Origin: a virus
Virus record (IMG/VR): IMGVR_UViG_3300020178_000058
Span: 1-23,393 of that record
Length of the DNA stretch: 23,393 nt
Reading direction: 5' to 3' (one strand)
The stretch's first letter is position 1. The number at the start of each line of letters is the position of its first letter. A program made the translations under genes and the position numbers. Below, piece after piece: positions 2,688 through 20,318 of the stretch. The notes beneath the pieces were generated by a model. That model did not search any database and was not told the DNA's origin. It saw only the letters and a list, made by a program, of their open reading frames with translations.

Positions 2688-5165
2688 TTAATTAAACACA
2701 TCGGGAGCAGAGCTATCGCCCGGAAGCCACCAATATTCTTTAAATTCTTTAGCATCTCTACGTATGCCAGCCTGTAATTTTTTTGCATATGATGGATCAT
2801 TCCATAACAAAACCTTTTCCCATACCATGCGACGCAACATAAGATTAATCATCCAGTTACTTTGATAAGGTAAATTCCTAATAACCTCGCTTAATATTCT
2901 AGTACCAGCTTTACTTGGCTCACCTTCGACAACATCTTTAGCGGAACCAAACAAGGCATAACCTATAGTATCTAATGATCCAATAACAGGACCAGCAACA
3001 TAACCAGATAAACCTTGACGATAATCAGCAAATCCCATAGCCACATCAAACAATGGACCGAAACCTCCTGATCTAACAAGTGCATTACCCCAGAAACGAC
3101 GAGCTGCTTCTGAATCTTCTAATGGATTCATTTCCATTGGTGTACGTCCTTTCGTAATTTCCATTAACTGAACACCTAAAGCTCCCATTAAAGTCATATA
3201 CACAACAGTATCAGCAATAGCTAACAACTTTTTATGTCCTAACGTAGACTCGCCAGCTTCTTTCCATGCTCTCTCTAAATGGTTATGATAGAAAGCCATA
3301 GGCCATGATTTAAACATAGCAAAGGATCTTGTAATTTCACCGGGAATCTCACCGGGTCTAGTGGTACCAGCAAGCTTGGCTCTTTCTTTTAAGTTTACAG
3401 TTGGAACACCAACTTCAACTTCTGCAAATATCATACGTGTATATTTGTCTGCAAGCTTTCTAGCTTCACCCATTTTGAGATTAGGTATATTTGCAATATC
3501 TTCTCCACGTAAATAAGCTACATCTCTGCCAGCAAATTGCTTAGTAAATGCTTTTGCTTTACGTATGGTATTCCAGTCTTGTTCTGTAATATCATAACGA
3601 CCTAATGCAACTTTCATTTGAGCTGATAAGTCAGCATAAGATTTAGATTGCACATCAGCCCATCCACTCATTAACATCATACCAGACCAACGACGTCCAG
3701 ATGCTGTGATATGTGTGAGGCCATTTAATCTTAATGATGAGTCTGTAATAAACTGAAAGAATGGTGACGCATTGTCTTCGTGCAAATAGCGAGCTAATGC
3801 AGAAGAAGTACCATCCATCATATGTTCATTGAGCAATCCAAGTTCAGCTGCAAGCTTTTCTCTTTCACCCGGAGCCAACCTCATAATCTCGTTAAGATAC
3901 CCACGTATCGCTTTCATTTGACTCATACCATTATATTTAGCCATCTTACGTACAGTCATCATATCAGTAGGCGCAGCAATAAGTGTTGTAGATCCTAAAC
4001 GTGTTGCCATAATAAGCGAATTAAAGTTGCGCATAACTTTACTAAATTGCGGTCTAACTGATTCTGGTATGCCTTTATGTAGTTGCCACATGTCATCAAA
4101 CAGCTGTGCTGATTTTTTAGCTCTAATAATAGATTTAGTATCACCTGTAGCTTGAACATCTTTATCAGCAATTTGTTGTATCTTGAGTTTTAAAAACTGT
4201 ACAGTAGACTCTGGATTGCCACCTAAGATTTGTAATGAAGCGATGTCTTTAGACATGCTGCGCAAATGATTCATCATCATGTCATAAGGATTAGAATCAC
4301 TAAATTTATTATGATAGGCTAGCCATGACTCCCCACTCTGGAATCGTAATACTCTTTGTTCTTGATGACGTTTGGCAATAGATCTGCCTGTACTAAATGT
4401 AGTAGCAGTAATAGCATCTAATTTATTACGTCCCTCTTGTGTAATAGATTCATATACTTTGTTGAGTACATCATCTAATTGCTTATCATCTAATGGTAGC
4501 CCTGTAACTCGATCCACCATCTCATCTCTAGATAGTAATGGTTTAACAAACTTTTTCCATGTATCTAAACCAGCAGCAATAATTTTGCCAGCATGATGAT
4601 GTTGAGGTAATGCCCATACTTTAATGTCACCCGGAATAGCACCGCCAGCTTGATTATATAATAGACGTGAATGCTCTGATGCTTCTTGGTAAGCTTTAGC
4701 TAATGCAGCTGCCTCAGCATTTTTGGTTACACCCGGGTTATATAATTCTTTTACAACGAGAGGAATAAAGTCTTCATTTGAACGGGTACCTAATAAAGCG
4801 CCCTTTTTAAACTTAACAATAAACTCATTGAGCGGAGCAATCAACTGAGACATGACAGCTTTTTCTTGATACGCCAATCGCTTGTTAGCAATGTCAATAA
4901 GAGCTTCGTATGGATCCTTAGAATTTTGTAAGTAATCTTCTAGCTCAATCTTAGCCAACATTGTTTGTAGCTTAAGGCGTTTGTTCTGTAGAATATTTCC
5001 TTCTAATACAACTAGTGTTTTGTAAGAAGCATCTTCAATAGCAGATGCTGGATCTTTAATTTGATTGTCAATAGCTTTGTAGTATTCATTAAATAGCTCT
5101 ATTGCATCTTCTTCAAACTTTTTATCTACCCCCGCATTAACTAAACATTGTCTAATATCTTGCAT
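2688..5165 (-). CDS. Large internal virion / ejection-type protein, C-terminal partner of the ParB-domain protein
   Basis: About 825 residues from ATG at 5165, whose A is the last base of the upstream TAA stop (TAATG). A GTG at 5180 would add five residues, but its GGAGG is only two bases away, so I prefer the ATG. I see no catalytic signature. The sequence resembles large structural proteins found just before the fibre gene in BPP-1-like and HMO-2011-like podoviruses: VWALPQHHHAGKI about a quarter of the way in, a hydrophobic stretch near VVYMTLMGALGVQLMEI in the last quarter, and YWWLPG close to the C-terminus. By position it corresponds to the gp16 slot of T7. The inferred role is an inner-core protein ejected into the host envelope during infection. 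No lytic transglycosylase or peptidase motif was recognised. Confidence 0.65.
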   Translation of the reverse strand: MQDIRQCLVNAGVDKKFEEDAIELFNEYYKAIDNQIKDPASAIEDASYKTLVVLEGNILQNKRLKLQTMLAKIELEDYLQNSKDPYEALIDIANKRLAYQEKAVMSQLIAPLNEFIVKFKKGALLGTRSNEDFIPLVVKELYNPGVTKNAEAAALAKAYQEASEHSRLLYNQAGGAIPGDIKVWALPQHHHAGKIIAAGLDTWKKFVKPLLSRDEMVDRVTGLPLDDKQLDDVLNKVYESITQEGRNKLDAITATTFSTGRSIAKRHQEQRVLRFQSGESWLAYHNKFSDSNPYDMMMNHLRSMSKDIASLQILGGNPESTVQFLKLKIQQIADKDVQATGDTKSIIRAKKSAQLFDDMWQLHKGIPESVRPQFSKVMRNFNSLIMATRLGSTTLIAAPTDMMTVRKMAKYNGMSQMKAIRGYLNEIMRLAPGEREKLAAELGLLNEHMMDGTSSALARYLHEDNASPFFQFITDSSLRLNGLTHITASGRRWSGMMLMSGWADVQSKSYADLSAQMKVALGRYDITEQDWNTIRKAKAFTKQFAGRDVAYLRGEDIANIPNLKMGEARKLADKYTRMIFAEVEVGVPTVNLKERAKLAGTTRPGEIPGEITRSFAMFKSWPMAFYHNHLERAWKEAGESTLGHKKLLAIADTVVYMTLMGALGVQLMEITKGRTPMEMNPLEDSEAARRFWGNALVRSGGFGPLFDVAMGFADYRQGLSGYVAGPVIGSLDTIGYALFGSAKDVVEGEPSKAGTRILSEVIRNLPYQSNWMINLMLRRMVWEKVLLWNDPSYAKKLQAGIRRDAKEFKEYWWLPGDSSAPDVFN

Positions 5166-7456
5166 TATTTTTTCGCGCACGCCTCCAGTATTTCAAGCTT
5201 AGCATCGTCATCTGCAATATCAGCTAAAGCTTGTCGCATTGTAATAGGATTGCCGTCTGCATCAAAATCAATCACTCTAGCAGCCATGGCGTCATCATCA
5301 GCAAGTCTACCTTGTATAATATCAAATGCATTATCTACATCTGTTTTAATTTGTTTAGATAGCTGACCTTCAGCATAAGCCATTAACTCTCTGTTACGCT
5401 GTCTAAACTGTTCTCCGAACTTATTAATTTGCGCTGTAGCGTTGCTTTCAGCGACGCGACCAGAGTTGTAGATGCTGTCGAAGCGGCCCTCATCAAATCC
5501 TGATCTGAGAGATTCAATGGTTGATCTAACTGCATTGTCTGCTTCGCCTCCATTTGAGATTGCTTGGGCGCCTCTGGTGATAATGTTTGAGATTTCTCCA
5601 GCTTCATTGCCTTTCTTTTTGAGGACTTCGATAATTTTTTCATTAGTCTCTATACTCCTTAAATTTGCTTGTTTATCTTTCCTACGTTTAAGTTTGTTAG
5701 TTTCTTTCTTTAAATCTTTAAGAACGCGGTCAATAATTAACTTTCTTTCTGGTTCTACAAATAATGATTTAATACCAATATCTGCATCTACCATATCATA
5801 ATCAACCAATGCTTTACTTTCAACCGCATCAATCACCATACGTTCAATATCATCAACATCCGTTATGCCTGATTTAATAATCATATCCATCATAGCTAAT
5901 TGTTCTTGTGGATCTACAATATGTTTACCTACAACCATACCAATTTCTTCTGATAACAGTCCTCTTTTTAATGCAACTAATGGACGAGGACCTAAGTTCA
6001 TAATAGCCTTGTAATGCTTAATGAGTGGATCAAATGTAGAAAGTGCAGTAACCATATCTGGATACTTTTCAAGTATCTTCATATCATACGGTTTAATGGT
6101 GCCATCATAATAGTTACGAATGCGGCCAGCCATCTCAGCCATTTCTTTAGTAAATCCATCAGTCTCTTTAATAACGTATCCGTATATTTTTTTCTGACCA
6201 GCTTTAGCCGCATCAGCCACGCGTTGATTCCCATCAATAATGATACGCTTACCAGCAGTATCTTCAAAAATTAAAATATGCCCAGATTTAATAGGGTCAA
6301 ATTCAGTTGCACTTGCTTTGACCTTTGCTTTTAAGTCAGCTAACTCAAACTCATCCACTAATGTATTTTGTTTTTCTAATGCATAAATATCATCAATCTT
6401 AATTTGCACGTTTTGTTGTGGCATATTATTTGCATCATTGCGTAAAATAGCTGACAATGTTTTTTGCACTAATCGATTATGTTTGATATTGCCAGAATCA
6501 TCTTTAATATAATTATCATCTTCTAAAATCTTATCAGCTGAATCTTTGTTGTTAGCTTGCTCTGTTTCTTTAAATGGTTTGTAATCTACATTTTTTTCAT
6601 TAGCAGCAATCTCTCTAAACAATTCTATTGCATCTAATTCCTCTTTTGGAGTTAATGCTCTGCCAGCTCGATTACTAATAGCGTTAAGCCATTGGCGCAC
6701 AGGAATACTGGTTACACCAACCAAGGCAGCAGTGCCAGCTGTAATGTATCCAGCATCTTGTGCAAACTCAGATAAAGTATAAGGTTCACCTAATACCTGT
6801 TGTTTCCATGCATTGACTTGAGGATAGTCTAATGCCTCAACACCAACGTTAATTGCAGATGCTTCTGCAACCTTTCTTAAAAAGCCAGCACCTCTACTGT
6901 AACCAATAAGTAATGATACTGCATCAGCTGGATCTGTCATATAAGATGTCATGCTACCTAAGAAGTCACCAAAGACACCTTTGCCTGATTGTTTTAAAGC
7001 AGTTTTTTCATATTTTTCTCTATAGTCACGAGCAACATCACGAGACATTTCTTGCAAATTTTCATGCAAGATTTGTGGTGAAGTAAAGTTAATCATAGCT
7101 GGATTAACAGCTTTTAACTTTTCAGCAGCAGACTCACTGTTTTGAGCATAATCCCATATACGTTTAGATACCAATGATCGGCCAGTATATGTATTGCCTT
7201 GCTCATCTAAATAAAATTTAGGATCACCTATCCAAGTCATAAGTTCATCACGAGTCATACCAGAGTCATCCATAATAACTTCATAGATAGGCTCAATGAC
7301 TTCTCTAAACATTTGCTGTTCACTACCAGCATTTTCTATAGATTTGGTGCTGTTGTAAGACGCAACAAAGTTTTCACCAAAAGTTGAATACTCTCCAGCT
7401 ACAACAGATTCTTGTAATGCAAAGTTAGTAGGATCCGGGTCGCTTAAAAATCTCAT
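5165..7456 (-). CDS. Internal virion / ejection-type protein with a DdrB-like ParB domain
   Basis: 763 residues. Start ATG at 7456 overlaps the upstream stop in an ATGA. Residues 160-250 hold glycine- and alanine-rich amphipathic or hydrophobic segments (GDFLGSMTSYMTDPADAVSL, DAGYITAGTAALVGVT) of the kind seen in membrane-active ejection proteins. Residues about 348-450 look like a ParB/Srx-superfamily domain: VQIKIDDIYALE, PIKSGHILIFED, then the core IIIDGNQRVADAAKAG (405-420) with the D-G-N-Q-R turn at 408-412. A helical segment follows, including AEMAGRIRNYYDGT. This arrangement resembles the DdrB-like ParB domains found in phage 'polyvalent' proteins. The region around 590-625 is lysine-rich and probably coiled. 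The C-terminus (EILEACAKK) ends on an A6 run overlapping the next gene. The enzymatic activity, if any, is unknown; DNA binding or nuclease action is inferred only from the superfamily. Confidence 0.68.
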   Translation of the reverse strand: MRFLSDPDPTNFALQESVVAGEYSTFGENFVASYNSTKSIENAGSEQQMFREVIEPIYEVIMDDSGMTRDELMTWIGDPKFYLDEQGNTYTGRSLVSKRIWDYAQNSESAAEKLKAVNPAMINFTSPQILHENLQEMSRDVARDYREKYEKTALKQSGKGVFGDFLGSMTSYMTDPADAVSLLIGYSRGAGFLRKVAEASAINVGVEALDYPQVNAWKQQVLGEPYTLSEFAQDAGYITAGTAALVGVTSIPVRQWLNAISNRAGRALTPKEELDAIELFREIAANEKNVDYKPFKETEQANNKDSADKILEDDNYIKDDSGNIKHNRLVQKTLSAILRNDANNMPQQNVQIKIDDIYALEKQNTLVDEFELADLKAKVKASATEFDPIKSGHILIFEDTAGKRIIIDGNQRVADAAKAGQKKIYGYVIKETDGFTKEMAEMAGRIRNYYDGTIKPYDMKILEKYPDMVTALSTFDPLIKHYKAIMNLGPRPLVALKRGLLSEEIGMVVGKHIVDPQEQLAMMDMIIKSGITDVDDIERMVIDAVESKALVDYDMVDADIGIKSLFVEPERKLIIDRVLKDLKKETNKLKRRKDKQANLRSIETNEKIIEVLKKKGNEAGEISNIITRGAQAISNGGEADNAVRSTIESLRSGFDEGRFDSIYNSGRVAESNATAQINKFGEQFRQRNRELMAYAEGQLSKQIKTDVDNAFDIIQGRLADDDAMAARVIDFDADGNPITMRQALADIADDDAKLEILEACAKK

Positions 7457-9858
7457 TCTTTAGTGGCCTTTTTTGCACGCTCTTGAATCCTTTTAATTTG
7501 CTGCACTTTGTATGGTACCTTTTCTTCTTTGCCTTGTAATTCTTCTTGTTTGCGTTTAGCATATTCGTCTTGACGTCTCATACCCGCTTCTTCTAAACCA
7601 CGGCCTGTACCATAACGTACCGGCTCATCAAGAGGTCCAGCATATTGCAATGTTTCCCAATGCTGGCGTAATATGTCTAAATCAACTTTAATCTCATTGC
7701 CATTTACATCTTTAAATGGAACGCCATTTTCATTAACTAAGGCATAAGCATCACCCCAATTAATTAAGCTAGCACCATTCAAATCTTCTTCACTGTAATT
7801 AAATATTTCGTTACCTTTGTATCCTTCAATGGTTGATAATGTTTTGTCTGGATTATTAATAAAGGCTTTAGCAAATGCTTCTACTGGAAGATCCTGAATA
7901 TATTCCTCTACTTGATCAGTTTTATATTGACCATCTAATATAACTAATCGACCATTAACTTCACCAACGCCACCATAACGTACACCATCAGAAGATACAA
8001 ACCCACCTGTTACAGCAAACAAAGCTTGACGTACATCATTGTCTTGTATAGTTTCTAAATTACCGCCATTACCAATATAATAAGCTTCTGCTGCTGCTAA
8101 GATACGTTCTGCATCTGCACCATGAACATTAACTAATCCACTCACAAGTTTAACAGCAGAGTCTGAACTTCTAATTTTGTTAGTAATATTAATCTTGTTA
8201 AGTTTTTTCTGGCTTTCACCATTAACCATTGTACGTAATGTTGCCGCCATATCTGGAGTGCCTTCCATGGCTAATACGCCCATATGCGCAAAGACTGGAT
8301 TTTTATCAGCAATTTGATTAAACACTGCATCTGCATCATCACCAAAAATAGAGACAATTTGTGTGGCTAGATTAATTTGCCCAAGGTTGGTGGTTCCATC
8401 TGGATTTGTTAGTGTTTGTACTAACTCATCTTTTTGAGCTTTTGTTAATAATGGACCACCTTTTTTATAATCAGGTGATGATTTAACTTTAGCAATTTGA
8501 TCTTCAAAGTTAGCAAGCAATACTGTCCCTGTTTCTGGATCATATTCAATAGCGCCATATTCAGCATCATTTCTACTTAATATATAATCAACACTATCTT
8601 TTGTTTTAGCTGTTTCAGCTTTACTTACAAATGTTTCTGCAATGCCAATTAACACTTCATTATCGCCTCTTTGTTTCATTTTGGCGACGTGTTGTTTCAT
8701 TTGGTTAATATCCATACCACGCATTTTGGTTGCAATATTAAAGGTTGCTTTGGTGAGTTCTACATCTGCTTGAGCAGCTACATTATTGTTTCCAGAAATA
8801 GTGTCTGCTTGTGTTTTATAATTCTCAATATTGTCAAGTAATCTTTCTGGGTTAGCACCATCATTAATAAGCGCATCACGAATACTTTTGCCATTTTTAG
8901 TAACGCTAGTTAATGCAGCATTGTTAGCATTGTCAATACGATTAAAGTCAGCAGCAACGTAATCTTCTAATGCATCTTTTTGTATGGGTGTAAATTGATC
9001 ATATATGCCACTGTATGCACCTAATTCACTTTTAGCAGCGGCATCTAAAAACTCATCCTTAGAGCCATACATTGTTTGAAACTGTCTAGACATATGACGA
9101 TACAATGCGCGCGTAAACTCATTTTCAACTTCATTTTGCAAGGTAGCAGCACGACTACTATTTTTAAATAGCTTTTTAGCTGATTCTTTATCATTAAGGT
9201 ATTTTTGCAATACTATTTCTGGAGCTAATCCAGAATCTAAATCAATTTCAAACTGACGTAAAAGACCTTTATATGATTCATCAGATATAAGGTCTTGTCT
9301 TAATTGTTCTTGTTTTTTAAGCTCAGTCAGGGACTTTCTATAATAACTACTACCATTTGTAATACTTTTTAAATAAAAGCTATTAGCTTCTGCTGGATCT
9401 ATTTGGCCAATAACATTTTGCCATGCCTTAATAGGAGCTTCTATAGCTTGTTGTATATCATCATGACCTGTAAGCTCACCATTTTCAACACGAACTAATA
9501 CATTATCGAAATGCTTATACGATTCATTAGTTAGTTCTGCTGATGCTTGTTGTGCATATAGTTTTGTAACAGCATCATTCCAAACCATACCACCATTTAA
9601 TGCAGCCTCAATAGGATTAATCCCATCATCTTTAGCAGCATTTAATTGTTCAATAGTTAATGGGTTAGCTACAGTGTATTCTTGAGCTTGTTTAACCACA
9701 GCACGTTCTGCCTCTGCTCGAGCAAACTTACCAATGGTGTCTAAAGCACCTTGTATGCTTTCTGAGCGTTTTGCATAAGCACTATACTGAGGCGTTTGTA
9801 ACTGAGGTACATCCGTCATCAATGGTGCTTGTTTTTCGTACTGTGGAAGCTTAGCCAT
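7453..9858 (-). CDS. Large internal virion protein in the T7 gp15 position
   Basis: 801 residues, mostly charged and helical, with no signal peptide and no recognised enzymatic motif. The N-terminus (MAKLPQYEKQAPLMTDVPQL) is proline-rich. The body is rich in Gln, Lys, Asp and Asn with long predicted helices such as LTELKKQEQLRQDLISDE. The C-terminus is a highly charged KR/E tail (RIQERAKKATKE). The start overlaps the upstream stop as TAATG, and its own stop overlaps the next start as ATGA, so the three ejection-type genes are translationally linked. Size and order (after the gp14-like gene, before the ParB-domain gene) match the gp15 slot of T7-type inner cores. Homology to gp15 itself cannot be shown by eye, so this is a positional inference. 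Confidence 0.6.
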   Translation of the reverse strand: MAKLPQYEKQAPLMTDVPQLQTPQYSAYAKRSESIQGALDTIGKFARAEAERAVVKQAQEYTVANPLTIEQLNAAKDDGINPIEAALNGGMVWNDAVTKLYAQQASAELTNESYKHFDNVLVRVENGELTGHDDIQQAIEAPIKAWQNVIGQIDPAEANSFYLKSITNGSSYYRKSLTELKKQEQLRQDLISDESYKGLLRQFEIDLDSGLAPEIVLQKYLNDKESAKKLFKNSSRAATLQNEVENEFTRALYRHMSRQFQTMYGSKDEFLDAAAKSELGAYSGIYDQFTPIQKDALEDYVAADFNRIDNANNAALTSVTKNGKSIRDALINDGANPERLLDNIENYKTQADTISGNNNVAAQADVELTKATFNIATKMRGMDINQMKQHVAKMKQRGDNEVLIGIAETFVSKAETAKTKDSVDYILSRNDAEYGAIEYDPETGTVLLANFEDQIAKVKSSPDYKKGGPLLTKAQKDELVQTLTNPDGTTNLGQINLATQIVSIFGDDADAVFNQIADKNPVFAHMGVLAMEGTPDMAATLRTMVNGESQKKLNKINITNKIRSSDSAVKLVSGLVNVHGADAERILAAAEAYYIGNGGNLETIQDNDVRQALFAVTGGFVSSDGVRYGGVGEVNGRLVILDGQYKTDQVEEYIQDLPVEAFAKAFINNPDKTLSTIEGYKGNEIFNYSEEDLNGASLINWGDAYALVNENGVPFKDVNGNEIKVDLDILRQHWETLQYAGPLDEPVRYGTGRGLEEAGMRRQDEYAKRKQEELQGKEEKVPYKVQQIKRIQERAKKATKE

Positions 9859-10415
9859 TATGCAGTTCCTTTCCAGTAGGCTGTAGATCCATACCTAGGG
9901 GTGCCTGATCCAGACATACCATAGCTTGGTAATTTTGTGCTACCACCCGGCATCAATTGATATGTGGAATAAGCTGTATTAGCTAATGCACTTAATGCAT
10001 TAAAATTAGATGCACTCTTAGCATATTGACCAGCTTGTTCAAACATAGCGGCTTGCACTTCGCCAAATGATCTTCTTTCTTTTGCAGTGCGCTGTAATTC
10101 TTGCACATCTTTTCCAGCATATTCCTCACTTACTGTTTGCATTAATAATGCTGATCCAGAAAAACCAGACACACCCCCAGAAAATCCTTGAGCTACAGCA
10201 GCTGCATTAATTTGTTTTAATTTACGTAATCTATTATTTGCTTCAATTTCTGCATTAACAGCTGCTCTTTCAGACTCTGCTCTTGCTTGGGCTGATTTAA
10301 TTTCAGCTTCTGACTCAGCAGCTGCGCCTTGTTGCATTGCTTGAAATGCACTCATAACGCCAGTAACGGCATTAATCCCCGTCATAATATTAGCTAATGT
10401 TAATTCAAACCCCAT
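9858..10415 (-). CDS. gp14-like internal virion protein
   Basis: 185 residues. The N-terminus is hydrophobic or amphipathic (LTLANIMTGINAVTGVMSAFQAM, about residues 5-27). A long Ala/Glu/Gln coiled-coil follows (about 28-75), with repeats such as SEAEIKSAQARAESERAAV. A Gly/Ser segment VAQGFSGGVSGFSGSALLM lies near 74-92. This pattern (membrane-active N-terminus, coiled coil, then a GxSGxS segment) is typical of small ejection proteins of the T7 gp14 type annotated in podoviruses. The gene follows the tail-nozzle gene by two bases and overlaps the next start. Such proteins form the distal channel through the outer membrane during DNA ejection. That role is inferred from family and context. Confidence 0.7.
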   Translation of the reverse strand: MGFELTLANIMTGINAVTGVMSAFQAMQQGAAAESEAEIKSAQARAESERAAVNAEIEANNRLRKLKQINAAAVAQGFSGGVSGFSGSALLMQTVSEEYAGKDVQELQRTAKERRSFGEVQAAMFEQAGQYAKSASNFNALSALANTAYSTYQLMPGGSTKLPSYGMSGSGTPRYGSTAYWKGTA

Positions 10416-10417
10416 AA

Positions 10418-12394
10418 TTATCTTCCTTGATAAACTGATACTTTATATTCTAACCCAAGTAACGTAAGTTTCAATGGCGCAGATTGTGTAATTGTAATCT
10501 GTCCATCATTACTATATCCGAGTATTCCATGCAATGACTTAGTCCCTGTAAATTTAGGAACAGGCGATCCTAATGCCCCTACGCCTAATGATCGTATAGG
10601 GACTAAATTATCATTAATGACAATATTTTGTGTTTCAAATAATAGTGCATTTACTTCTAATACGCGCTTTCTAAAACCAATACGAGTTCCCGCTTGTGCT
10701 TTAACATTTAGTGGTAATGTTTTAATTTCTATATCAATAGGTAATCCAACTTCAGATGATGTGGTTGGCGGATTAACAAACGTTACAGCACTATCTGCTG
10801 TTTGATCTAATTCAACGTAACCATCAGAAATTACATTGACAGTTGCCCCATCAATGTGTGACATATCTAGACTAGTTGCTGTTGTCCCTTGTTTGGCACA
10901 ATCTGTTAAATAAGCATTATCAAACACTTCTACATAATATTTATCAACGCCATTATCATCCCGTTTAACAACTGTATAAATATCTGTAATATCAACGCCA
11001 ACATCAATATAAGTGCCTACGGTTGTAAACTCAGATGGCGCAATAACATTTTGTAATCTCATTAAAGAAAATGCTGCAATACTGCCATCATCTTCATTAA
11101 CAATTAATAATAAATCGTTTTCATCAGTCGCTACTGCTCTACGCAAATCCATACGTTTAGGCGATTTTAATAAATGTCCAGCCAGCAATGAAATTTTAGA
11201 AGTAATATAAGTAAGTTGTGTATCAGAATATGCAATCTCTGATAATGCCTTGCCTTGTCTTTGAATAAATAAAACACCAGATTCTAGCTGTTTAACCCTC
11301 ATACCTTCTCTAGCACCATTACGTGATGTAGATGATAAAAAGAAACTAGCTGGCGTAATAGGTGTTAATCCTTCTTGCGGAACATAAAACTCACCGCCCG
11401 TAGTAAACACTTGCAAATCACGGCCACTAATAATATCAACGATAGAATTAAAAGTGTTAGTATCAAGGGTAGCTTCAACAGCATCATCATCTAATCCTTC
11501 TACAGCTTCAAAATCAAAATATAGTCCTACCTTAGATCCCCATATGGTCGATGGTCTAGATTTAGATCCACCAAAAAATAAACGTCCTTGATGGAATGTT
11601 ACTGATTGTGGCCAACCTCTACTAGCTGACCATACATTTTCATAGCCTGTTTCTAACTCCCAATCACCATTTGCTACAGCAGATGTATCAAAAAATGGAA
11701 ATTCTGTAACAACATTAACTGATGTCCCACTATTATATTTAACAATTTTTGCTCGCCCTTGAGGATCAGCATTAATATATTGACCAACATGACCGCTAGT
11801 AAATACGCTTGATGATGCAGTAATTGTAATCTTACCTGACACATCACTAGGAGTAATGGTTCCAGCTGGATTAGTAGTAGTTAATGTATATGCATATTTT
11901 GGGATAGAATCAAATGTGATATTAGATATGGTCCATGAACTATCAGAAGCGCCACGCACAATTTTAACAGGTTGAAAATCCTCATCTACAATAATAAGCG
12001 TATCAGCAGACTGTGTCCAACACATATGATCTAAATGCGTACTAGTGATGCTATAACCTGTAGTATCTAAATAATCATTGCCAGAGCTATTAATATTGGT
12101 AATTAATTGTTTATTTTTGTACACATACATTCTGTTGGTTGTAAAACATAACATATAGCTATCATCAACAGAAAATTCAAATGTCACTAAACGAACACCA
12201 TCAGCTGGAGTGCCACCTAATTCATTAATAAATTTACTACCGGGTCTGCGCTTAACACCACCTTGTGGTTGGCAAATAACATTCTTGGCTGTTTCTAAAG
12301 CATTATCATAGGCTTTTAAGTCAACGCGTGAACGCGCTAACGGATCTAGCTCGCCTGTTGTAAAGTTAGTTTGTACTTCTACAAATCGAGCCAT
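10418..12394 (-). CDS. Tail tubular protein B / tail nozzle (T7 gp12-like)
   Basis: 658 residues, beta-rich throughout. The N-terminus carries the hallmark of podoviral tail-nozzle proteins: VQTNFTTGELDPLARSRVDL (about residues 8-27), then a stretch with LETAKNVICQPQGGVKRRPG at about 33-52. Further typical segments are WPQSVTFHQGRLFFGGSKSRP near the middle and FEAVEGLDDDAVEATLDT after it, where the protein reads as a blade-like beta structure. The start overlaps the gp11-like stop by one base (TAATG), and the pair gp11-like/gp12-like is the standard order. The role is to form the tubular tail below the portal, plug the DNA channel and support the fibres. Confidence 0.87.
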   Translation of the reverse strand: MARFVEVQTNFTTGELDPLARSRVDLKAYDNALETAKNVICQPQGGVKRRPGSKFINELGGTPADGVRLVTFEFSVDDSYMLCFTTNRMYVYKNKQLITNINSSGNDYLDTTGYSITSTHLDHMCWTQSADTLIIVDEDFQPVKIVRGASDSSWTISNITFDSIPKYAYTLTTTNPAGTITPSDVSGKITITASSSVFTSGHVGQYINADPQGRAKIVKYNSGTSVNVVTEFPFFDTSAVANGDWELETGYENVWSASRGWPQSVTFHQGRLFFGGSKSRPSTIWGSKVGLYFDFEAVEGLDDDAVEATLDTNTFNSIVDIISGRDLQVFTTGGEFYVPQEGLTPITPASFFLSSTSRNGAREGMRVKQLESGVLFIQRQGKALSEIAYSDTQLTYITSKISLLAGHLLKSPKRMDLRRAVATDENDLLLIVNEDDGSIAAFSLMRLQNVIAPSEFTTVGTYIDVGVDITDIYTVVKRDDNGVDKYYVEVFDNAYLTDCAKQGTTATSLDMSHIDGATVNVISDGYVELDQTADSAVTFVNPPTTSSEVGLPIDIEIKTLPLNVKAQAGTRIGFRKRVLEVNALLFETQNIVINDNLVPIRSLGVGALGSPVPKFTGTKSLHGILGYSNDGQITITQSAPLKLTLLGLEYKVSVYQGR

Positions 12395-13008
12395 TAGTAC
12401 CTCACATCAATAAGCGAGAAGTCTTGTATTGCGTTGGTTGGTTGTCCTTGAGAATCTATGGTCATTGCAGTCCTCATATAACCGCCACGCCCGTTTTCAC
12501 CCGGAGTGCCTTCTGCAATAGTACGCCAATAATCTGTTTTTTCTGTTTGATCTGTAATAGGGTTAGCTAAATGCCATGTCATCTCATAACGTAATAATTG
12601 TACAAAGAAATGCGGCATGGCATATTCAGGTACTGTATATTGATAATCAATATATACTTTTTCATAATTAGTTAATATCTTATCGCCCTGAATTTTATAA
12701 TCACGTCTTGGGTGAGCATAAGTTGAACTAGTATCATAAACCGCTCTTGGTCTTGCAATCATGTCTGATGGCAATTGATATTCGTATTTGTATTCGTTTA
12801 CAGGTGTTGTAATAAGTCTTGAAAGTTGTACTTTCTTAAATGAAAAAGACCATGGAAAGCTTGCTAGTGTTTTAATCTTTACATCTGGGTAAAGTCGGTC
12901 GCATATGCTAGCTTCATCCGTTCCTTCTGTAAAAGATGAGATAGGGTTTGCACCTAGTAATAATAGTGCATCAGAACATATTTTAATATCGGTATCACCA
13001 GTTGCCAT
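12394..13008 (-). CDS. Tail tubular protein A / head-tail adaptor (T7 gp11-like)
   Basis: 204 residues, within the usual length for the family. Diagnostic segments are ICSDALLLLGANPISSFTEG (residues 10-29) and the SICDRLYPDVK and TLASFPWSFSFKKVQLSRL stretches, followed by YEYQLPSDMIARPRAVYD. This is the signature of the podoviral adaptor family that docks under the portal. GGAGAT lies just upstream of ATG 13008 as a strong ribosome binding site. The gene sits immediately after a strong hairpin that separates it from the capsid/decoration pair. It links portal to tail nozzle. Confidence 0.88.
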   Translation of the reverse strand: MATGDTDIKICSDALLLLGANPISSFTEGTDEASICDRLYPDVKIKTLASFPWSFSFKKVQLSRLITTPVNEYKYEYQLPSDMIARPRAVYDTSSTYAHPRRDYKIQGDKILTNYEKVYIDYQYTVPEYAMPHFFVQLLRYEMTWHLANPITDQTEKTDYWRTIAEGTPGENGRGGYMRTAMTIDSQGQPTNAIQDFSLIDVRY

Positions 13009-13366: not shown

Positions 13367-14209
13367 TTAAGATTCACGACATGTGAGTTCAATGATACCC
13401 TCGTTGTCGATAGCAACAGCTGTAGCAGAAAGAATTGTATTCACAAGGAATGAAGTCTTTTCTGGAACATAGTTGATCTCTGTACGAGGAGCGATACCTT
13501 CAGCATAGCCAATTGCATCTTTATGGAATGCAAATAATTGACGGTCAAGAGAACCATCAACAGATAGGCCACCTTCAGTTCTGTCGCCAAGTACGTGGAA
13601 TTTAAAGCCTAAGAAAGTATTAAGCTCACCAGATACTAAAGCACGAACTGTGTTGTAATCAGCAGATGTTACAGCTGTTTCTGAAAGTAATGCAGCTAAA
13701 GAGTTAGCATGGATAACCATATGACGATCCATTGGAGGAACGTTATTTTTATCCATAAGTTTTTTAGTTTCACGTAGTTTAGCTACGTTTAAGTTTGTAT
13801 CAGTACCACCAATGTCATTAGACACGGTGTATGATGTAGATGCAGCATCTAATGCATCAAGAATAAGTTGATCTTGACGACGACCAATAGCGTTAGCAAG
13901 AACTTGTACTAACTCTTGTCTTTCATCAAAATTAACTTTTTGTTGCATAAAGATGTCGCTGTATTCAGCTGCGTTCCAATCTTCGAGCGTAGCTGTAACT
14001 TGTGAGAAGCTTACATTAAGTGGAGTAACGTCAGTTTGTGGCACACGAAGTGTCGCTGAACCTTTACCTACTTTAGGAAACTTCACAACTTCCCCTTCAA
14101 CGCCGCGTCTCATACGAGTAGCACCAACTAATTGTGATTTAGCTTGGTACGCCTGTTTAACTTCGGCATCAAAGAGTGTAACAAAAGCATTAGATAAACC
14201 AATAGCCAT
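13367..14209 (-). CDS. Major capsid protein
   Basis: 280 residues, in a range typical of short HK97-fold capsid proteins. Features in order are: an N-terminal helix region (ALS-type start MAIGLSNAFVTLFDAEVKQA), GEVVKFPKVGKGSATLRVPQ near 40-59, SQVTATLEDWNAAEYSDIFMQQKVNFDERQELV, an IGRRQDQLILDALDAA helix and a C-terminal INYVPEKTSFLVNTILSA segment before IELTCRES. It follows the scaffold gene and is preceded by a 174-base leader with several hairpins. The AAGGAG site (14216-14221) at optimal spacing points to very high expression. It assembles the icosahedral head on the scaffold. The call rests on sequence type and on position between scaffold and adaptor. Confidence 0.87.
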   Translation of the reverse strand: MAIGLSNAFVTLFDAEVKQAYQAKSQLVGATRMRRGVEGEVVKFPKVGKGSATLRVPQTDVTPLNVSFSQVTATLEDWNAAEYSDIFMQQKVNFDERQELVQVLANAIGRRQDQLILDALDAASTSYTVSNDIGGTDTNLNVAKLRETKKLMDKNNVPPMDRHMVIHANSLAALLSETAVTSADYNTVRALVSGELNTFLGFKFHVLGDRTEGGLSVDGSLDRQLFAFHKDAIGYAEGIAPRTEINYVPEKTSFLVNTILSATAVAIDNEGIIELTCRES

Positions 14210-14383: not shown

Positions 14384-15184
14384 CTAGTTAAAGTTTTGAG
14401 AGAACGCTCGTTCTACTTTTTGACGGTAAGCTGGATCATCTTTGTATCGTGGATCCGCTACCATAGCATATAAGTCTTCTTTAGATGGTGCGCCTTCTAC
14501 AGGTGTTGTTTCTATAGGTAGACGGCCCTCATAAGATGATCTAAGTTTTTCTAATGCAGCAAGACCTTTGGCAGTCCCACCCATTACTTTAAATTCATCA
14601 AAATCATCTTTGGACCACACGCCTTTATTAACTAACCCCGAAGCCCACTTAACCATGCCGTTAATTCTAGCATCAGCATTGGGTCCCAAAGCTTTGCGTT
14701 CTTCTGCCAGATTAGTTTCAAATGCAGCGTTTGACTCTTGATTCATTTCAACCACTTGGCTTACTAAAGCATCTAATGCGGCTTGGCTTACGCCATACTC
14801 GCCAGCCCAGTTAAGAACATGTTGCCTGATAGGATCATCTTCAGATGTGCCACCAAACGCAGACATATCATACTTACCGTCAGCGGGTGCTTTATGTTTG
14901 CCTTGTGATATTTGTTTACGTAAATCAGTCCATGATTTTGCTATTGCTTCTAAATCTGGTTCTGATTCTTCTGATTTCCAGAAATTCTCAGGCCACCATT
15001 CTGGTCGCTCGAGTGGTTCATCGTCTTGCTGTGCTGCTAATTCAGCTGGATCACGATGATCTATTTCTACTGCTTGTGGATTTTCTGAGCTGGCTTCCTC
15101 ATTTTCGACTGTTGCTGAATCGAGTAGGCCAGTTTCAGGAGTTGCTTCTTCTTGAACACTAGGCTCGATTGTTTCTTCGCTCAT
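14384..15184 (-). CDS. Capsid scaffold / assembly protein
   Basis: 266 residues, strongly acidic at the N-terminus (Glu/Asp-rich first 90 residues: SEETIEPSVQEEATPETG, RDPAELAAQQDDEPLERPEW). A PEWWPENFW motif, common in T7-like and other podoviral scaffolds, lies near 61-69. A helical core (GEYGVSQAALDALVSQVVEM, then AFETNLAEERKALG) follows, and a basic helical C-terminus (DPAYRQKVERAFSQNF) where scaffolds contact the capsid. The gene lies between the Bbp19-like protein (the stop and start share one base) and the major capsid gene, the usual position. AAGGAAA lies upstream of ATG 15184. It directs procapsid assembly and is expected to leave the mature head. Confidence 0.85.
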   Translation of the reverse strand: MSEETIEPSVQEEATPETGLLDSATVENEEASSENPQAVEIDHRDPAELAAQQDDEPLERPEWWPENFWKSEESEPDLEAIAKSWTDLRKQISQGKHKAPADGKYDMSAFGGTSEDDPIRQHVLNWAGEYGVSQAALDALVSQVVEMNQESNAAFETNLAEERKALGPNADARINGMVKWASGLVNKGVWSKDDFDEFKVMGGTAKGLAALEKLRSSYEGRLPIETTPVEGAPSKEDLYAMVADPRYKDDPAYRQKVERAFSQNFN

Positions 15185-15450: not shown

Positions 15451-17031
15451 TTATCCTTGTTGTTGTGTCATAGCTTCAGCAACTTGTGCTGCTGCTGCTG
15501 GATTTTGAGCAGCGGCTTGTTCCATTTGTTTTGCCATTTGTTGCTGCATCATCATACGTTCCATTTGTGTTGTTAATATAGATTGAGGCACACCTAATTG
15601 TGCTGCAATAAAGTCCATCATTGCTGGGACTTTAAGCGTAGTCATTGCTTCTGGTCCAGCTTGTGCTGCAATTTGAGCATAGTTCATTACTTTTTCAACT
15701 TCTTCCATAGCTTGTGCTTGTGCAAGTGGAGCTGATGCTTGTATTCTAACTTCAAGCCCATTAACTTTTAATGGTAAATCAATCATACCGCGGTCATCCA
15801 TAACATTTAAAATTTTAGTTACCAATGGAATCATTGTCTCATTAATCAGTCGACCAAATGCAGATCCAAGATTTTGTGATAATTCTTTCATGCGCTCAAC
15901 AACCTCTGTCGCACTCCTAGCACTCATATTATCAGGTGGTAAGCTTTCGTCAAGCAATATACGTTTAATATTTTGACGAAGATCATTCATAATAATATTA
16001 GATACATTAAAGTCACCACTTCTTGGTAAGGGTCTAAGCGATTCACCTTGTGGTCCGCCATTACGCGCCACAGGAATAATAGCTCCCGGCATAATCTTTA
16101 CTGTGTTAGGATTCAGTACACCATCATCGGCTGCTGTATAAACACCACTAATAGCAAGAGATGCATTTTTAAGTACCAACTCTAATGTTTTATTAAGCGT
16201 TTTAACATCTGGTAATGCAGTAATCAATGGTCCTCGACCATAAATCTCACCCGCTACTTTAGAATAACGAGATACAATCCATGGGCTAACACGCATTCTT
16301 CGGTACACTAATTCCTGTTTTGATTGTTTATGAATAACATGGTAACAATAATCACCGCGCTTTTGATCCATAATCGTTGCTTCAACTAACTCTACATCGT
16401 CTGTTGGCTTTTGATCAATCTTATCTTGCAATTCTTTTGGAATTTTAGCATCAGGCCATTGTTTCTGAATAACCTCCCCTTTAAGTCGAATACGTCTATA
16501 TACATTATCTACTTGACCATCTGCGCCTTCTTCAAATGCAACCAAGTATTGTGGTACTGGAATAAAGTTAATAGGATTAACATCATCTCCCGGTTGCACC
16601 ATCATGACTGCGGTACCTACACAAAGGTCTAATAAAAACTCACCAATAGCAATATCAAAGTTAGATTGCTTAAGTGCTGCAAACATTTTTTCAGCATATA
16701 CATCTAAGGCAAGTTGTGCTTCTTGTCTTCTATCCATTGGTATTTCAGATCCGGGTTCCAACCTACACCATTTACGTTGTGGAGGGAAAATACCTGATTG
16801 CATTCTGTTAGCAAAACGTTGTGTAGAATTAATGGCCGTTGAATCAAATACACGATTCATTTTTTTATTGCCACCTACTTTGCCTTCGTAATGACCATCA
16901 TATAAATTGCGCTGAGGTAAAGCAAACTCATAAGCTTCCTCGTAAAGATTTCTAAAATCTTCTTTCTTAACTAACGCAAGCTCATGTCTTTTTAAAACAT
17001 CTTCTGCTTTTAATCTCATCATTGCTACCAT
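15451..17031 (-). CDS. Portal / head-to-tail connector protein (T7 gp8-like)
   Basis: 526 residues, the usual size for the T7-type head-tail connector family. Visible signatures are NLYEEAYEFALPQRNLYDGH near 28-47, a FDSTAINSTQRFANRMQSGI stretch near 62-81, PPQRKWCRLEPGSE, IPVPQYLVAFEEGADGQVDN, SPWIVSRYSKVAGEIYGRGP and LPPDNMSARSATEVVERMKE. The C-terminus is Gln/Ala/Met-rich (QMERMMMQQQMAKQMEQAAA) and probably helical, like other portal barrels. It forms the dodecameric ring at the packaging vertex that docks terminase during packaging and the gp11-like adaptor afterwards. Start ATG at 17031 lies two bases after the upstream stop. MRLKAEDVLKRHELALVKKE shortly after the start is the canonical N-terminal helix, so an internal Met could also serve. 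Confidence 0.9.
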   Translation of the reverse strand: MVAMMRLKAEDVLKRHELALVKKEDFRNLYEEAYEFALPQRNLYDGHYEGKVGGNKKMNRVFDSTAINSTQRFANRMQSGIFPPQRKWCRLEPGSEIPMDRRQEAQLALDVYAEKMFAALKQSNFDIAIGEFLLDLCVGTAVMMVQPGDDVNPINFIPVPQYLVAFEEGADGQVDNVYRRIRLKGEVIQKQWPDAKIPKELQDKIDQKPTDDVELVEATIMDQKRGDYCYHVIHKQSKQELVYRRMRVSPWIVSRYSKVAGEIYGRGPLITALPDVKTLNKTLELVLKNASLAISGVYTAADDGVLNPNTVKIMPGAIIPVARNGGPQGESLRPLPRSGDFNVSNIIMNDLRQNIKRILLDESLPPDNMSARSATEVVERMKELSQNLGSAFGRLINETMIPLVTKILNVMDDRGMIDLPLKVNGLEVRIQASAPLAQAQAMEEVEKVMNYAQIAAQAGPEAMTTLKVPAMMDFIAAQLGVPQSILTTQMERMMMQQQMAKQMEQAAAQNPAAAAQVAEAMTQQQG

Positions 17032-17306: not shown

Positions 17307-17890
17307 TATTCGTACCACTCTAATTCTAAAGTTGCATATTGTGATGCACCGCTCACATTTGTTAATCTAACTAAATAATTTGTTAATGGTGACAATATAT
17401 ATTCTAATGAACCGCCTTCACCACCACTCGCTTTTTTCTTAATACCACCCGGCAATAATTCAGCAAATACTTCTGTGCCTGTAGCTGATACGGTTGGATC
17501 AAGCAATGCTGCTGTGCTACTTGTTTTACTACTTGTTCTATTTCGTTTAACGGCTGTCTTGCTTGTACCACCTGTAGCTGTTGCACCTTCAAATAAATAA
17601 AGTTCAGCATCACCGCCACAAATAGCACCAATGGTCATGTGCATTGACACGCCAGACGCAGAAGCAATGACAAAATCAATTGAGTCAGTATCAACTAATG
17701 GCGTTCCATTTTTTCTATTCTCATAAAGAAAATAAGCATTACCTTCATGCAACCTATGATGATTAACATCTACCGTAATGAGTGGTCGTTCACTACCAGT
17801 GACATGCTGGTCATTATTCTCATCAGCTTGTGTTAGCGTCACAAATCTTGACTTAGTATTATCTGATTCTCTTTTTACACTCAATACCAT
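17306..17890 (-). CDS. Beta-rich probable virion structural protein
   Basis: 194 residues, soluble and beta-rich with alternating hydrophobic residues: MHMTIGAICGGDAELYLFEG in the middle and NYLVRLTNVSGASQYATLEL at the end. A Ser/Thr/Lys-rich middle loop (SKTAVKRNRTSSKTSSTAAL) is likely exposed. The start lies directly at the stop of the upstream gene (shared base at 17890). I do not recognise the family with certainty. Proteins of this type (a single beta-sandwich with an ELYLFEGAT-like strand) occur in the head region of HMO-2011-like phages and may be head fibre or decoration components. A structural role is inferred from the fold pattern and from the neighbouring portal gene. Confidence 0.6.
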   Translation of the reverse strand: MVLSVKRESDNTKSRFVTLTQADENNDQHVTGSERPLITVDVNHHRLHEGNAYFLYENRKNGTPLVDTDSIDFVIASASGVSMHMTIGAICGGDAELYLFEGATATGGTSKTAVKRNRTSSKTSSTAALLDPTVSATGTEVFAELLPGGIKKKASGGEGGSLEYILSPLTNYLVRLTNVSGASQYATLELEWYE

Positions 17891-18147
17891 TAGAAACTAA
17901 TCTCCAATCCAACACCTCTAGAATCAATACCTTTATGGTGACCTTTGCCCCAATCAACATAATGGCCAGCGCCTTGAATTAATAAATCTACTTTATTTTC
18001 TATTATAGGTTGTCTGTATTGAATACCGCCGCCAATAGCTGTCACACTTTTATTTGATGAGCCACCAAAATTATATTCAAGCGATCCGCCTGTAAATTTT
18101 TTTAATACAGCATTAATTTGATTATCAGTTATTATTTCATCGCCCAC
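17890..18147 (-). CDS. Small beta-strand-rich protein with an outer-membrane-like C-terminus
   Basis: 85 residues from a GTG at 18147 with GGGAG six bases upstream. An ATG at 18171 in the same frame would add eight residues inside the lysozyme gene and lacks a good site. After a short helix (NQINAVLKKFTGG) the rest alternates hydrophobic and polar residues as in beta strands: SLEYNFGG, VTAIGGGIQYRQPI, KVDLLIQGAGHYVDWG, RGVGLEISF. The last strand ends in Phe, as in the beta-signal of outer-membrane barrels. There is no signal peptide. I do not recognise the family. It follows the lysozyme, so a role in lysis or virion structure is possible, but nothing in the sequence settles this. Confidence 0.6.
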   Translation of the reverse strand: MGDEIITDNQINAVLKKFTGGSLEYNFGGSSNKSVTAIGGGIQYRQPIIENKVDLLIQGAGHYVDWGKGHHKGIDSRGVGLEISF

Positions 18148-18694
18148 TAAATGCTCCCATAATTTGATCATCAGTTAATGCTTGCTGGCGATTATAATTA
18201 ATTAACTCTTTTTGTTGTCCAAATTTTTTAATAGCTACACTAAAATCTGTTGTGCGCTTAGGTGTTTGCTTATGCCATTTTGAATCAAACACTTCTTGAG
18301 ATGCCTCGTTATATTTTCCTGTACTTAAATATTCCCAAGTTTTTTTATGCACCGTATGCCAATTTTCGCCTAACTGAAAATTAACAGACACTAATGCATC
18401 TATTAACTCTGGCGTAGCGCCATCAATTGATTTGGCTTGTTGTTGAGCTGCTTTTTTTGCCCACGTTAAATCTTCATGCAACCATTGATCAACAACTTGT
18501 TTTGGAATTTGTGTACCTTTAGGGTACATTTTTTGTTCTTCTAGGGTTAATAAATGGCCAACGCCACCCGTCAACTTATCTAAGCTATCAAGGTAACTTA
18601 CATATTTAACCCCTTCTCTTTCTTTTAAATGCTCAATTAAATTTGCCATAATTGGGTGCGTTGTAAAGATTAATAGGAGGAATAGTAATCTCAT
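18137..18694 (-). CDS. GH24 (T4/P21-type) lysozyme with N-terminal secretion signal
   Basis: 185 residues from ATG at 18694; a TTG at 18703 in the same frame would add three. The N-terminus RLLFLLLIFTTHPIMA is a hydrophobic signal peptide or signal-anchor. The catalytic triad spacing of T4 lysozyme, E-8-D-5-T, is exact: Glu in EREGVKY, Asp in SYLDS, Thr in KLTGGVGH. After GGVGHLLT comes a helical domain with QVVDQWLHEDL and LIDALVSVNFQLGENWH. It cleaves the peptidoglycan glycan backbone at the end of infection. An exported or SAR-type endolysin would not need a large-hole holin. An ATG at 18649 (MANLIEH) would give a signal-less cytoplasmic enzyme with the Glu at residue 12, as in T4; neither start has a clear ribosome binding site. 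Confidence 0.88.
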   Translation of the reverse strand: MRLLFLLLIFTTHPIMANLIEHLKEREGVKYVSYLDSLDKLTGGVGHLLTLEEQKMYPKGTQIPKQVVDQWLHEDLTWAKKAAQQQAKSIDGATPELIDALVSVNFQLGENWHTVHKKTWEYLSTGKYNEASQEVFDSKWHKQTPKRTTDFSVAIKKFGQQKELINYNRQQALTDDQIMGAFSGR

Positions 18695-18703
18695 GCCAGT
18701 CAA

Positions 18704-19818: not shown

Positions 19819-20318
19819 TACTTTCTCCTCATGATATATGTGTCTTCTTTAGTTACGCTATAATTTTTCATTAACCCTTCAGCTTCGAATCCTAAAGTGT
19901 TGGCCCAAGCTACAGCGCGCTTATCTTTGGATACTACCGTAATTTGTATGCGATGTAAATTAAATAATATCTCACAGATATCAAAGAATATTAAAGCGCC
20001 CTTGGTCATAGCTATTGGATATCGTCTAGCTGTCTCATGAAATATAGACCACACCTCACCAACCCCAGACCAAAGTATCCCACAACCAAAAATAGCGACA
20101 GGCTCGTTATGTAAAAGCGCAGTAATAGTCGGACCAGCAAGAGACTGTGTATTAAGACGGTATTTTCTATTTTGTTCCGTAAGCGATGAAAGCCCATAAA
20201 TATCTGTTCCTTTAAAATGATCTGCATGATTAGGATGATAATTAGTATAATATACACCCTTGACACTAGGCATATATTTATCTAAATAGTTCTGATCAAT
20301 TAAATATATCGAAGTCAC
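19818..20318 (-). CDS. GNAT-fold protein resembling T7 gp13 internal virion protein
   Basis: 166 residues from a GTG at 20318 that overlaps the terminase stop by 23 bases. An ATG at 20273 is an alternative, and no strong ribosome binding site decides. The second half has the GNAT acetyltransferase pattern: VAIFGCGILWSGVGEVWSIF strand pair, a helix TKGALIFFDICEILFNLHRI, QITVVSKDKRAVAWANTLGF and EAEGLMKNYSVTKEDTYIMR. This matches the degenerate GNAT proteins of podoviruses that include T7 gp13, needed for virion morphogenesis. The canonical acetyl-CoA P-loop (R/Q-x-x-G-x-G/A) is not clear, so catalytic activity is doubtful. Confidence 0.72.
   Translation of the reverse strand: MTSIYLIDQNYLDKYMPSVKGVYYTNYHPNHADHFKGTDIYGLSSLTEQNRKYRLNTQSLAGPTITALLHNEPVAIFGCGILWSGVGEVWSIFHETARRYPIAMTKGALIFFDICEILFNLHRIQITVVSKDKRAVAWANTLGFEAEGLMKNYSVTKEDTYIMRRK

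What the first reader, a model, noticed from the sequence alone, without database searches (positions are those of the whole stretch)
5165..7456. ParB/Srx-like domain embedded in a probable ejected virion protein
Residues about 348-450 of the 763-residue protein carry an IIIDGNQRVADA core typical of the ParB/DdrB-like superfamily. They lie between an N-terminal membrane-active-looking region and a lysine-rich coiled C-terminus. The gene sits in the ejection block, so the domain may be delivered into the host with the DNA. It could act as a DNA-binding, nuclease or anti-defence module (the 'polyvalent protein' idea) in place of a lytic transglycosylase. Related ParB-bearing phage proteins are known; entry of this domain into the cell has not, to my knowledge, been shown for this type.
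Basis: partly seen in the sequence, partly recalled or inferred. Interest (0 to 1): 0.6.

Follow-up and report, generated by a model that had tools for sequence, protein, structure and literature searches.

The report
Phage ejection protein with ParB domain
A short-tailed marine phage has, among the proteins it probably pushes into the cell with its DNA, one with a worn-out ParB-like module; close relatives of that protein carry a swappable toxin-like enzyme behind the module, so these phages probably deliver interchangeable enzymes at the moment of infection.

Summary
The 763-aa ORF lies in a T7-type ejection block (gp14-like, gp15-like, target, phrog_684, fibre) and contains a ParB-like module at about residues 365-550. 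A profile of 44 modules hits only ParB/Noc/Spo0J chains in the PDB (best E 7e-5); the model's first 34 Foldseek hits are all ParB, Noc, KorB or sulfiredoxin types. It is ParB/Noc-like rather than DdrB-like. The window's copy is degenerate: it keeps 10 of 26 conserved columns, 43 of 44 relatives keep 23-26. The larger find is the family. A search anchored on the downstream gene gave 70 complete upstream genes; all have the same N-terminal module, ParB module and Cys-containing tail. Sixty-one carry an enzyme between ParB and tail: zeta-type kinase (36) or Tas1/RelA-like alarmone synthetase (25). Two chassis 97.8% identical over residues 1-720 carry different enzymes. The window's slot is empty. 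A Vibrio phage has the chassis without ParB. Best reading: an ejection-protein chassis that delivers interchangeable effectors, here without one; ParB is probably a DNA/nucleotide-binding module. Ejection and activity are inferred, not shown. The concept is close to polyvalent proteins and MuF toxins; the chassis appears new.

The parts
5165..7456 (-). Target gene, 763 aa: ejection chassis with ParB-like module, no effector
6590..7387 (-). N-terminal helical chassis module (residues 24-289), shared by all upstream neighbours of phrog_684 and by Vibrio phage ZCVPP1 without ParB
   Evidence: HMM E 2e-73 self, 2e-30 ZCVPP1, 3e-14 DVV-SI2; 70/70 complete genes in the phrog_684-anchored set
5810..6364 (-). 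ParB/Noc-like module (residues about 365-549): nucleotide-type domain plus helical middle domain
6209..6235 (-). DGNQRVADA (residues 408-416), counterpart of family DGHQRL and of ParB GERR/GxRR
6080..6124 (-). RIRNYYDGTIKPYDM (residues 445-459), degenerate form of family motif A..KNIAEGTGTAIDAAK, counterpart of the ParB ENxQR box
5342..5767 (-). Basic helical region after ParB (residues 564-705), conserved across the family
   Evidence: Cterm HMM E 6e-34; AF2 helices 568-591, 595-615, 621-634, 639-655
5252..5359 (-). Empty effector slot (residues about 700-735): relatives insert 250-600 aa of zeta-type kinase, Tas1/RelA-like synthetase, GNAT or other domains here
5171..5344 (-). Conserved C-terminal tail (residues 705-762) with invariant Cys760
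   Evidence: tail HMM; Cys760 invariant in A5
2688..5165 (-). Downstream ejection-block gene, phrog_684 'virion structural protein' (likely ATG at 5165 rather than the listed GTG at 5180)
   Evidence: fused to the chassis-ParB protein in one 2,812-aa ORF in L180
7453..9858 (-). gp15-position ejection protein, 801 aa
   Evidence: homologues in 69 loci
9858..10415 (-). gp14-like internal virion protein, 185 aa (phrog_418)
   Evidence: E 7e-12
10418..12394 (-). Nozzle / tail tubular protein B-like

Best explanation
The gene encodes one of the internal virion (ejection) proteins of a T7-like podovirus. It is a chassis of conserved parts: an N-terminal helical module, a ParB/Noc-like module, a basic helical stretch and a short C-terminal tail with an invariant cysteine. 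In the capsid it would sit with the gp14-like, gp15-like and phrog_684 proteins and leave through the portal with or before the DNA. In most relatives the chassis carries a swappable enzyme between the basic stretch and the tail (zeta-type kinase or Tas1/RelA-like alarmone synthetase), which would thereby reach the cytoplasm at the start of infection. The ParB-like module most likely holds nucleotide and/or DNA, helping to keep the protein with the genome or to time its release. In this window the slot is empty and the ParB motifs have decayed, so this copy most likely serves only as a structural or DNA-gripping ejection component. Shown by sequence: domain composition, fold, synteny, slot, cassette exchange. 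Inferred: packaging, ejection, nucleotide or DNA binding, effector activity.
For: Fold. Ejection block and synteny. Independent anchor (phrog_684, no ParB in the query): 70 of 70 complete upstream genes have N-module, ParB and tail; 36 zeta, 25 rel, 9 empty; 44 clusters at 70% identity (23/14/7). Cassette exchange with sharp edges: L227 (zeta) and L229 (rel) share 704 of 720 residues over 1-720, about a fifth to a quarter of aligned residues over the next ~280, and then 27 of 31 in the tail. Cargo identity: the profile of the rel group hits T6SS effector Tas1 (6ox6) at E 1e-23; zeta-group segments hit PF06414 at E 3e-17 to 1e-39. Chassis without ParB: Vibrio phage ZCVPP1. Physical link to a second ejection protein: 2,812-aa fusion with phrog_684 in L180. 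The same module is fused to lambda-type and Mu-type portals and follows the gp15-position gene in P-SCSP1 cyanophages. Degeneracy here.
Against: No proteomics or infection data exist for any member that I could find; P-SCSP1 genes in this region were only speculated to be internal virion proteins from size and position (PMC9860041). The class-A-only profile gave no ParB hit in the PDB; the link relies on the wider family profile and on the fold search. TM-scores are modest (mostly 0.35-0.59 by target length) and model confidence is moderate (mean pLDDT 70; mostly 74-90 in the ParB part). The N-terminal module has no fold match. Whether cargo enzymes are active or toxic is unknown; zeta-like P-loop kinases can have other substrates. 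The tail match in ZCVPP1 is weak (E 0.0013).
Confidence: 0.62

Rival explanations
1. The ParB-like module is a working NTP-dependent DNA clamp of the ejectosome: after ejection it grips incoming DNA in the cytoplasm, doing the job proposed for T7 gp16-C.
For: ParB/Noc-like two-domain fold. In the intact family the Q of FQFK lies 44 residues before the H of the GH motif in the commonest case, close to the spacing between Q52 and the GERR motif of Myxococcus ParB; the Q52A variant lacks CTPase activity (PMC12462528) and the last R of GxRR is kept (PMC10770331). T7 gp16-C binds DNA without sequence preference and is thought to clamp it (PMC8954989).
Against: The window copy lost the FQFK motif and the H of GHQR. 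ZCVPP1 lacks the module. No nucleotide or DNA binding data.
Confidence: 0.2
2. The module is itself an injected effector (NTP-regulated DNase or NTPase), as Iyer et al. 2017 predicted for DdrB-ParB domains, acting on host DNA, rival DNA or defence nucleotides.
For: Same module in a polyvalent protein and fused to portals; ParB-like nucleases exist (PMC5512222).
Against: Not PF18763. Present in all 70 anchored homologues whatever the cargo, which suits a constant chassis part rather than a variable effector. Degenerate in the window.
Confidence: 0.12
3. The protein is an assembly or scaffold factor that is never ejected.
For: No proteomics; a conserved virion-gene neighbourhood also suits assembly factors; the module is fused to portals in other phages.
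Against: It sits in the gp14-gp15-gp16 block, not with the likely scaffold gene just upstream of the capsid gene (14384-15184, by position only); swappable enzyme cargo is hard to explain for a scaffold; fused with phrog_684 in L180.
Confidence: 0.1

Closest known systems
Polyvalent proteins with DdrB-like ParB domains (Iyer et al. 2017, PMC5512222)
   Same: Phage virion-gene context; ParB/Srx-superfamily domain joined to disparate enzymes in one polypeptide; predicted injection with DNA; RelA/SpoT and GNAT domains are also reported there
   Different: ParB here is closer to ParB/Noc with a middle domain and does not match PF18763; fixed chassis in a T7-type ejection block with one slot; no metallopeptidase hit in the class-A proteins; zeta toxin is not mentioned in that paper (0 occurrences)
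MuF polymorphic toxins, Apk2 family (PMC12226406)
   Same: Constant phage head-associated N-terminal part, variable toxin including (p)ppApp synthetases
   Different: No MuF domain in class A; cargo lies inside the protein and is followed by a constant tail; found in podovirus ejection blocks; phrog_684 follows directly, with no room for an immunity gene between
T7 gp16 / P22 gp16 ejection proteins (reviewed in PMC8954989)
   Same: Place after gp14 and gp15; mosaic domain content; T7 gp16 has transglycosylase and DNA-binding parts
   Different: No detectable homology, no transglycosylase; the gp16 role may be split between this protein and phrog_684
Chromosomal ParB / Noc / KorB
   Same: Fold and order of nucleotide domain and middle domain
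   Different: No ParA partner seen in the window, no C-terminal dimer domain recognised; GxRR replaced by GHQR/GHNR in the family; motifs decayed in the window copy

Membership tests
ParB/Noc (CTPase plus middle domain) | ParB/Srx fold plus ParB middle domain | tested here: met
   PDB profile search only ParB/Noc/Spo0J, aligned over 38-194 of the profile; Foldseek ranks 1-34, about 200 columns. A class-A-only profile alone gave no hit
ParB/Noc (CTPase plus middle domain) | GxRR phosphate motif | tested here: inconclusive
   G and final R kept (G409, R412), first R replaced (GNQR; family GHQR/GHNR)
ParB/Noc (CTPase plus middle domain) | Catalytic Q (Q52 of M. xanthus ParB) | tested here: not met
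   Family has Q in FQFK at similar spacing, but the window region is not alignable to it
ParB/Noc (CTPase plus middle domain) | CTP binding and hydrolysis, specific DNA binding | not testable with these tools
   needs purified protein
DdrB-ParB (PF18763) | Match to the family HMM above cut-off | tested here: not met
   No hit in the window protein, in 23 class-A proteins, in the family consensus or in six contigs searched with the family
Polyvalent proteins | Two or more disparate effector domains in one polypeptide | tested here: not met
   Window protein: ParB-like only. Relatives meet it
Polyvalent proteins | Encoded among virion genes | tested here: met
MuF polymorphic toxins | N-terminal MuF domain | tested here: not met
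   no PF04233 hit in class A
MuF polymorphic toxins | Constant carrier with exchangeable toxin | tested here: inconclusive
   Exchange of enzyme cassettes is clear in relatives, toxicity untested, and the window's slot is empty
T7 gp16-type ejection protein | Transglycosylase domain and sequence homology | tested here: not met
   no family hit; N-terminal model without fold match
T7 gp16-type ejection protein | Gene position after gp14 and gp15 homologues, before fibre | tested here: met
T7 gp16-type ejection protein | Present in virion and ejected | not testable with these tools
   no proteomics found

The most novel reading that the evidence does not exclude
A large group of podoviruses (marine contigs and prophages of Alphaproteobacteria among others) uses one ejection protein as a polymorphic-toxin-like carrier: a constant N-module, ParB module and tail with an internal slot for exchangeable enzymes (Tas1-like alarmone synthetase, zeta-type kinase) that are injected with the genome, the ParB module acting as a nucleotide-gated DNA handle. 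The window is an unloaded member whose ParB has decayed.
Probability: 0.45. Interest if true: 0.82.

Novelty: new variant of a known kind. Interest (0 to 1): 0.62.

Why it matters
If right, a T7-like ejection protein doubles as a delivery vehicle for interchangeable enzymes, extending the polyvalent-protein and MuF ideas to a defined, abundant and alignable chassis. It makes an open question testable: whether podophages inject enzymatic effectors before any phage gene is expressed. It also suggests a function to test for genes of P-SCSP1 cyanophages that their describers could not annotate (PMC9860041).

Tried and rejected
Pfam and PHROGs on the window protein alone: no hit. phmmer against the PDB with the single protein: only a chance match. 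A family consensus sequence against Pfam: nothing of note. A class-A-only profile against the PDB: no ParB; the wider profile was needed. PF18763 (DdrB-ParB) searched in relatives' contigs: none. The first alignment suggested a 17-aa deletion before the motif in the window; counting residues shows that the stretch is present but not alignable, so I claim divergence, not deletion. Structure prediction of the N-terminal module: pLDDT 66, no fold match, so no claim is made. Lytic transglycosylase in the target: not found. A possible selection bias (relatives were found by the GH(N/Q)R pattern) was countered by a scan anchored on phrog_684. Paper searches for zeta toxin with internal virion protein or with polyvalent proteins, and for ejection proteins of podoviruses with ParB: no paper in the held library.

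Full report
WHAT IS IN THE WINDOW. The window is a 23.4-kb virus contig, all main genes on the minus strand: terminase 20296-21852, T7-type portal 15451-17031 (PF12236, E 2e-100), capsid 13367-14209, tail tubular A 12394-13008, nozzle 10418-12394, gp14-like internal virion protein 9858-10415 (phrog_418), a gp15-position protein 7453-9858, the target 5165-7456, phrog_684 'virion structural protein' 2688-5165, and a fibre 786-2648. The target overlaps its neighbours by ATGA and TAATG. Two other metagenome contigs hold nearly the same protein.

THE PARB-LIKE MODULE IS REAL. Single-sequence searches gave nothing. tblastn in phage records found Dunaliella viridis virus SI2 (same gene slot) and a 3,912-aa polyvalent protein of Ruegeria phage 45A6; from there P-SCSP1 cyanophages and the fosmid phage S31-C1. 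Alignment-based scans gave hundreds of relatives. A profile of 44 such modules hits the PDB only in ParB/Noc/Spo0J chains: 11 of 11 matches, best E 7e-5, aligned over both the nucleotide domain and the middle domain. The AlphaFold2 model of the window protein (mean pLDDT 70; mostly 74-90 at 390-550) has ParB, Noc, KorB, PadC or sulfiredoxin at Foldseek ranks 1-34 (best E 2.8e-4; TM by target length up to 0.59). A class-A-only profile had no ParB hit, so the evidence is good but not overwhelming.

THE WINDOW COPY IS DEGENERATE. Among 44 other representatives, 26 columns are at least 88% identical; 43 of the 44 keep 23-26 of them (a truncated one keeps 19), the window keeps 10. The stretch holding FQFK is not alignable in the window, GH became GN, and NIAEGTGTAIDAAK became NYYDGTIKPYDMK. 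In intact members the Q of FQFK lies 44 residues before the H of GH(Q/N)R in the commonest case. Q52 of Myxococcus ParB, whose Q52A variant lacks CTPase activity (PMC12462528), lies 41 residues before the residue preceding R94-R95 of its GxRR motif (numbering from PMC10770331). That these are counterparts is my inference. One other phrog_684-anchored relative (L241, 614 aa, DGQQRV) also looks decayed.

THE EJECTION BLOCK. In class A (contigs L008-L086) the order MCP - gp11 - nozzle - gp14 - gp15 - target - phrog_684 - fibre is kept wherever the contig reaches, apart from small members below the search threshold. It also occurs in prophage-like regions of Sphingopyxis, Novosphingobium, Aureimonas, Methylobacterium, Bradyrhizobium and Stappia. 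In L180 the target and phrog_684 are one 2,812-aa protein. In L046 a transglycosylase lies in the gp15-position protein. The giant P-SCSP1-type proteins sit in the same place; their describers speculated that genes there are internal virion proteins, on size and position only (PMC9860041).

THE EFFECTOR SLOT. Long class-A proteins have 250-600 extra residues between window positions ~705 and ~730. One group of inserts hits Tas1, a T6SS effector that makes (p)ppApp, at E 1e-23 (activity of Tas1 is established knowledge, see also PMC12226406). Another hits Zeta_toxin PF06414 at E 3e-17 to 1e-39. GNAT domains occur in two. Of 84 complete class-A proteins 34 are Tas1/RelA-like, 18 zeta-like, 6 other and 26 without recognised cargo; this sample is redundant. 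A scan anchored on phrog_684, which does not see ParB, gave 70 complete upstream genes: all 70 have the N-module, ParB and tail, with 36 zeta, 25 rel and 9 empty; as 44 clusters: 23, 14, 7. Close chassis carry different enzymes: L227 and L229 share 704 of 720 residues, then unrelated cargo, then 27 of 31 in the tail; three more pairs behave alike. A Vibrio phage has N-module and tail in 615 aa with no ParB, so ParB is itself an added part. The window protein is an empty form.

MECHANISM. Packaging and ejection follow from position, neighbours and the T7 precedent (PMC8954989); they are inferred. The constant presence of ParB whatever the cargo (70/70) suits a carrier function - holding DNA or nucleotide - better than an effector function. 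In the window, with ParB decayed and the slot empty, a structural or DNA-gripping role is most likely.

COMPARISON. Polyvalent proteins (PMC5512222) and MuF polymorphic toxins (PMC12226406) are the known concepts. This family works like them but fails their defining tests in part: no PF18763, no MuF, and in the window no effector. I therefore call it a new variant of a known kind. The novelty lies in the chassis and the exchange, not in the existence of a ParB-like domain in a phage protein.

Noticed in passing
21853-22656 (-): PAPS-reductase-family gene (PF01507, just above its cut-off) directly before the terminase gene; role unknown.
   Followed up: no
18137-18703 (-): Lysozyme-type endolysin (phrog_7, E 8e-17) encoded far from the ejection block, followed by a 93-aa ORF 17890-18171 that reads like a small beta-barrel.
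   Followed up: no
L046 4781-7795: gp15-position protein of 1,005 aa with an N-terminal transglycosylase, while the neighbouring ParB protein is intact: the peptidoglycan enzyme can move between ejection proteins.
   Followed up: partly
L019 10051-10470 and L065 10054-10900: Weak ParB_N (PF02195) matches inside the cargo segment, i.e. perhaps a second ParB-like domain with an L.DGNSTY motif.
   Followed up: no
L120 7633-11208 and L138 4888-10089: Two copies of the ParB-like module motif in one protein.
   Followed up: no
L131 7243-9987, L135 4674-7490, L146 4524-7589: The ParB-like module is fused behind Mu-type (L131) and lambda-type (L135, L146) portal proteins.
   Followed up: partly
L155 8272-12504; L180 7714-16149: ADP-ribosyltransferase domains in the same polypeptides as the ParB-like module.
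   Followed up: no
L241 5160-7001: Second case of a short, cargo-less chassis with decayed ParB motifs (DGQQRV, no FQFK, no NIxxGxG); ParB may decay when cargo is lost, though other empty forms keep intact motifs.
   Followed up: no
5177-5179 (-): A cysteine at the extreme C-terminus (Cys760) is invariant in all 33 aligned class-A proteins; reason unknown.
   Followed up: no
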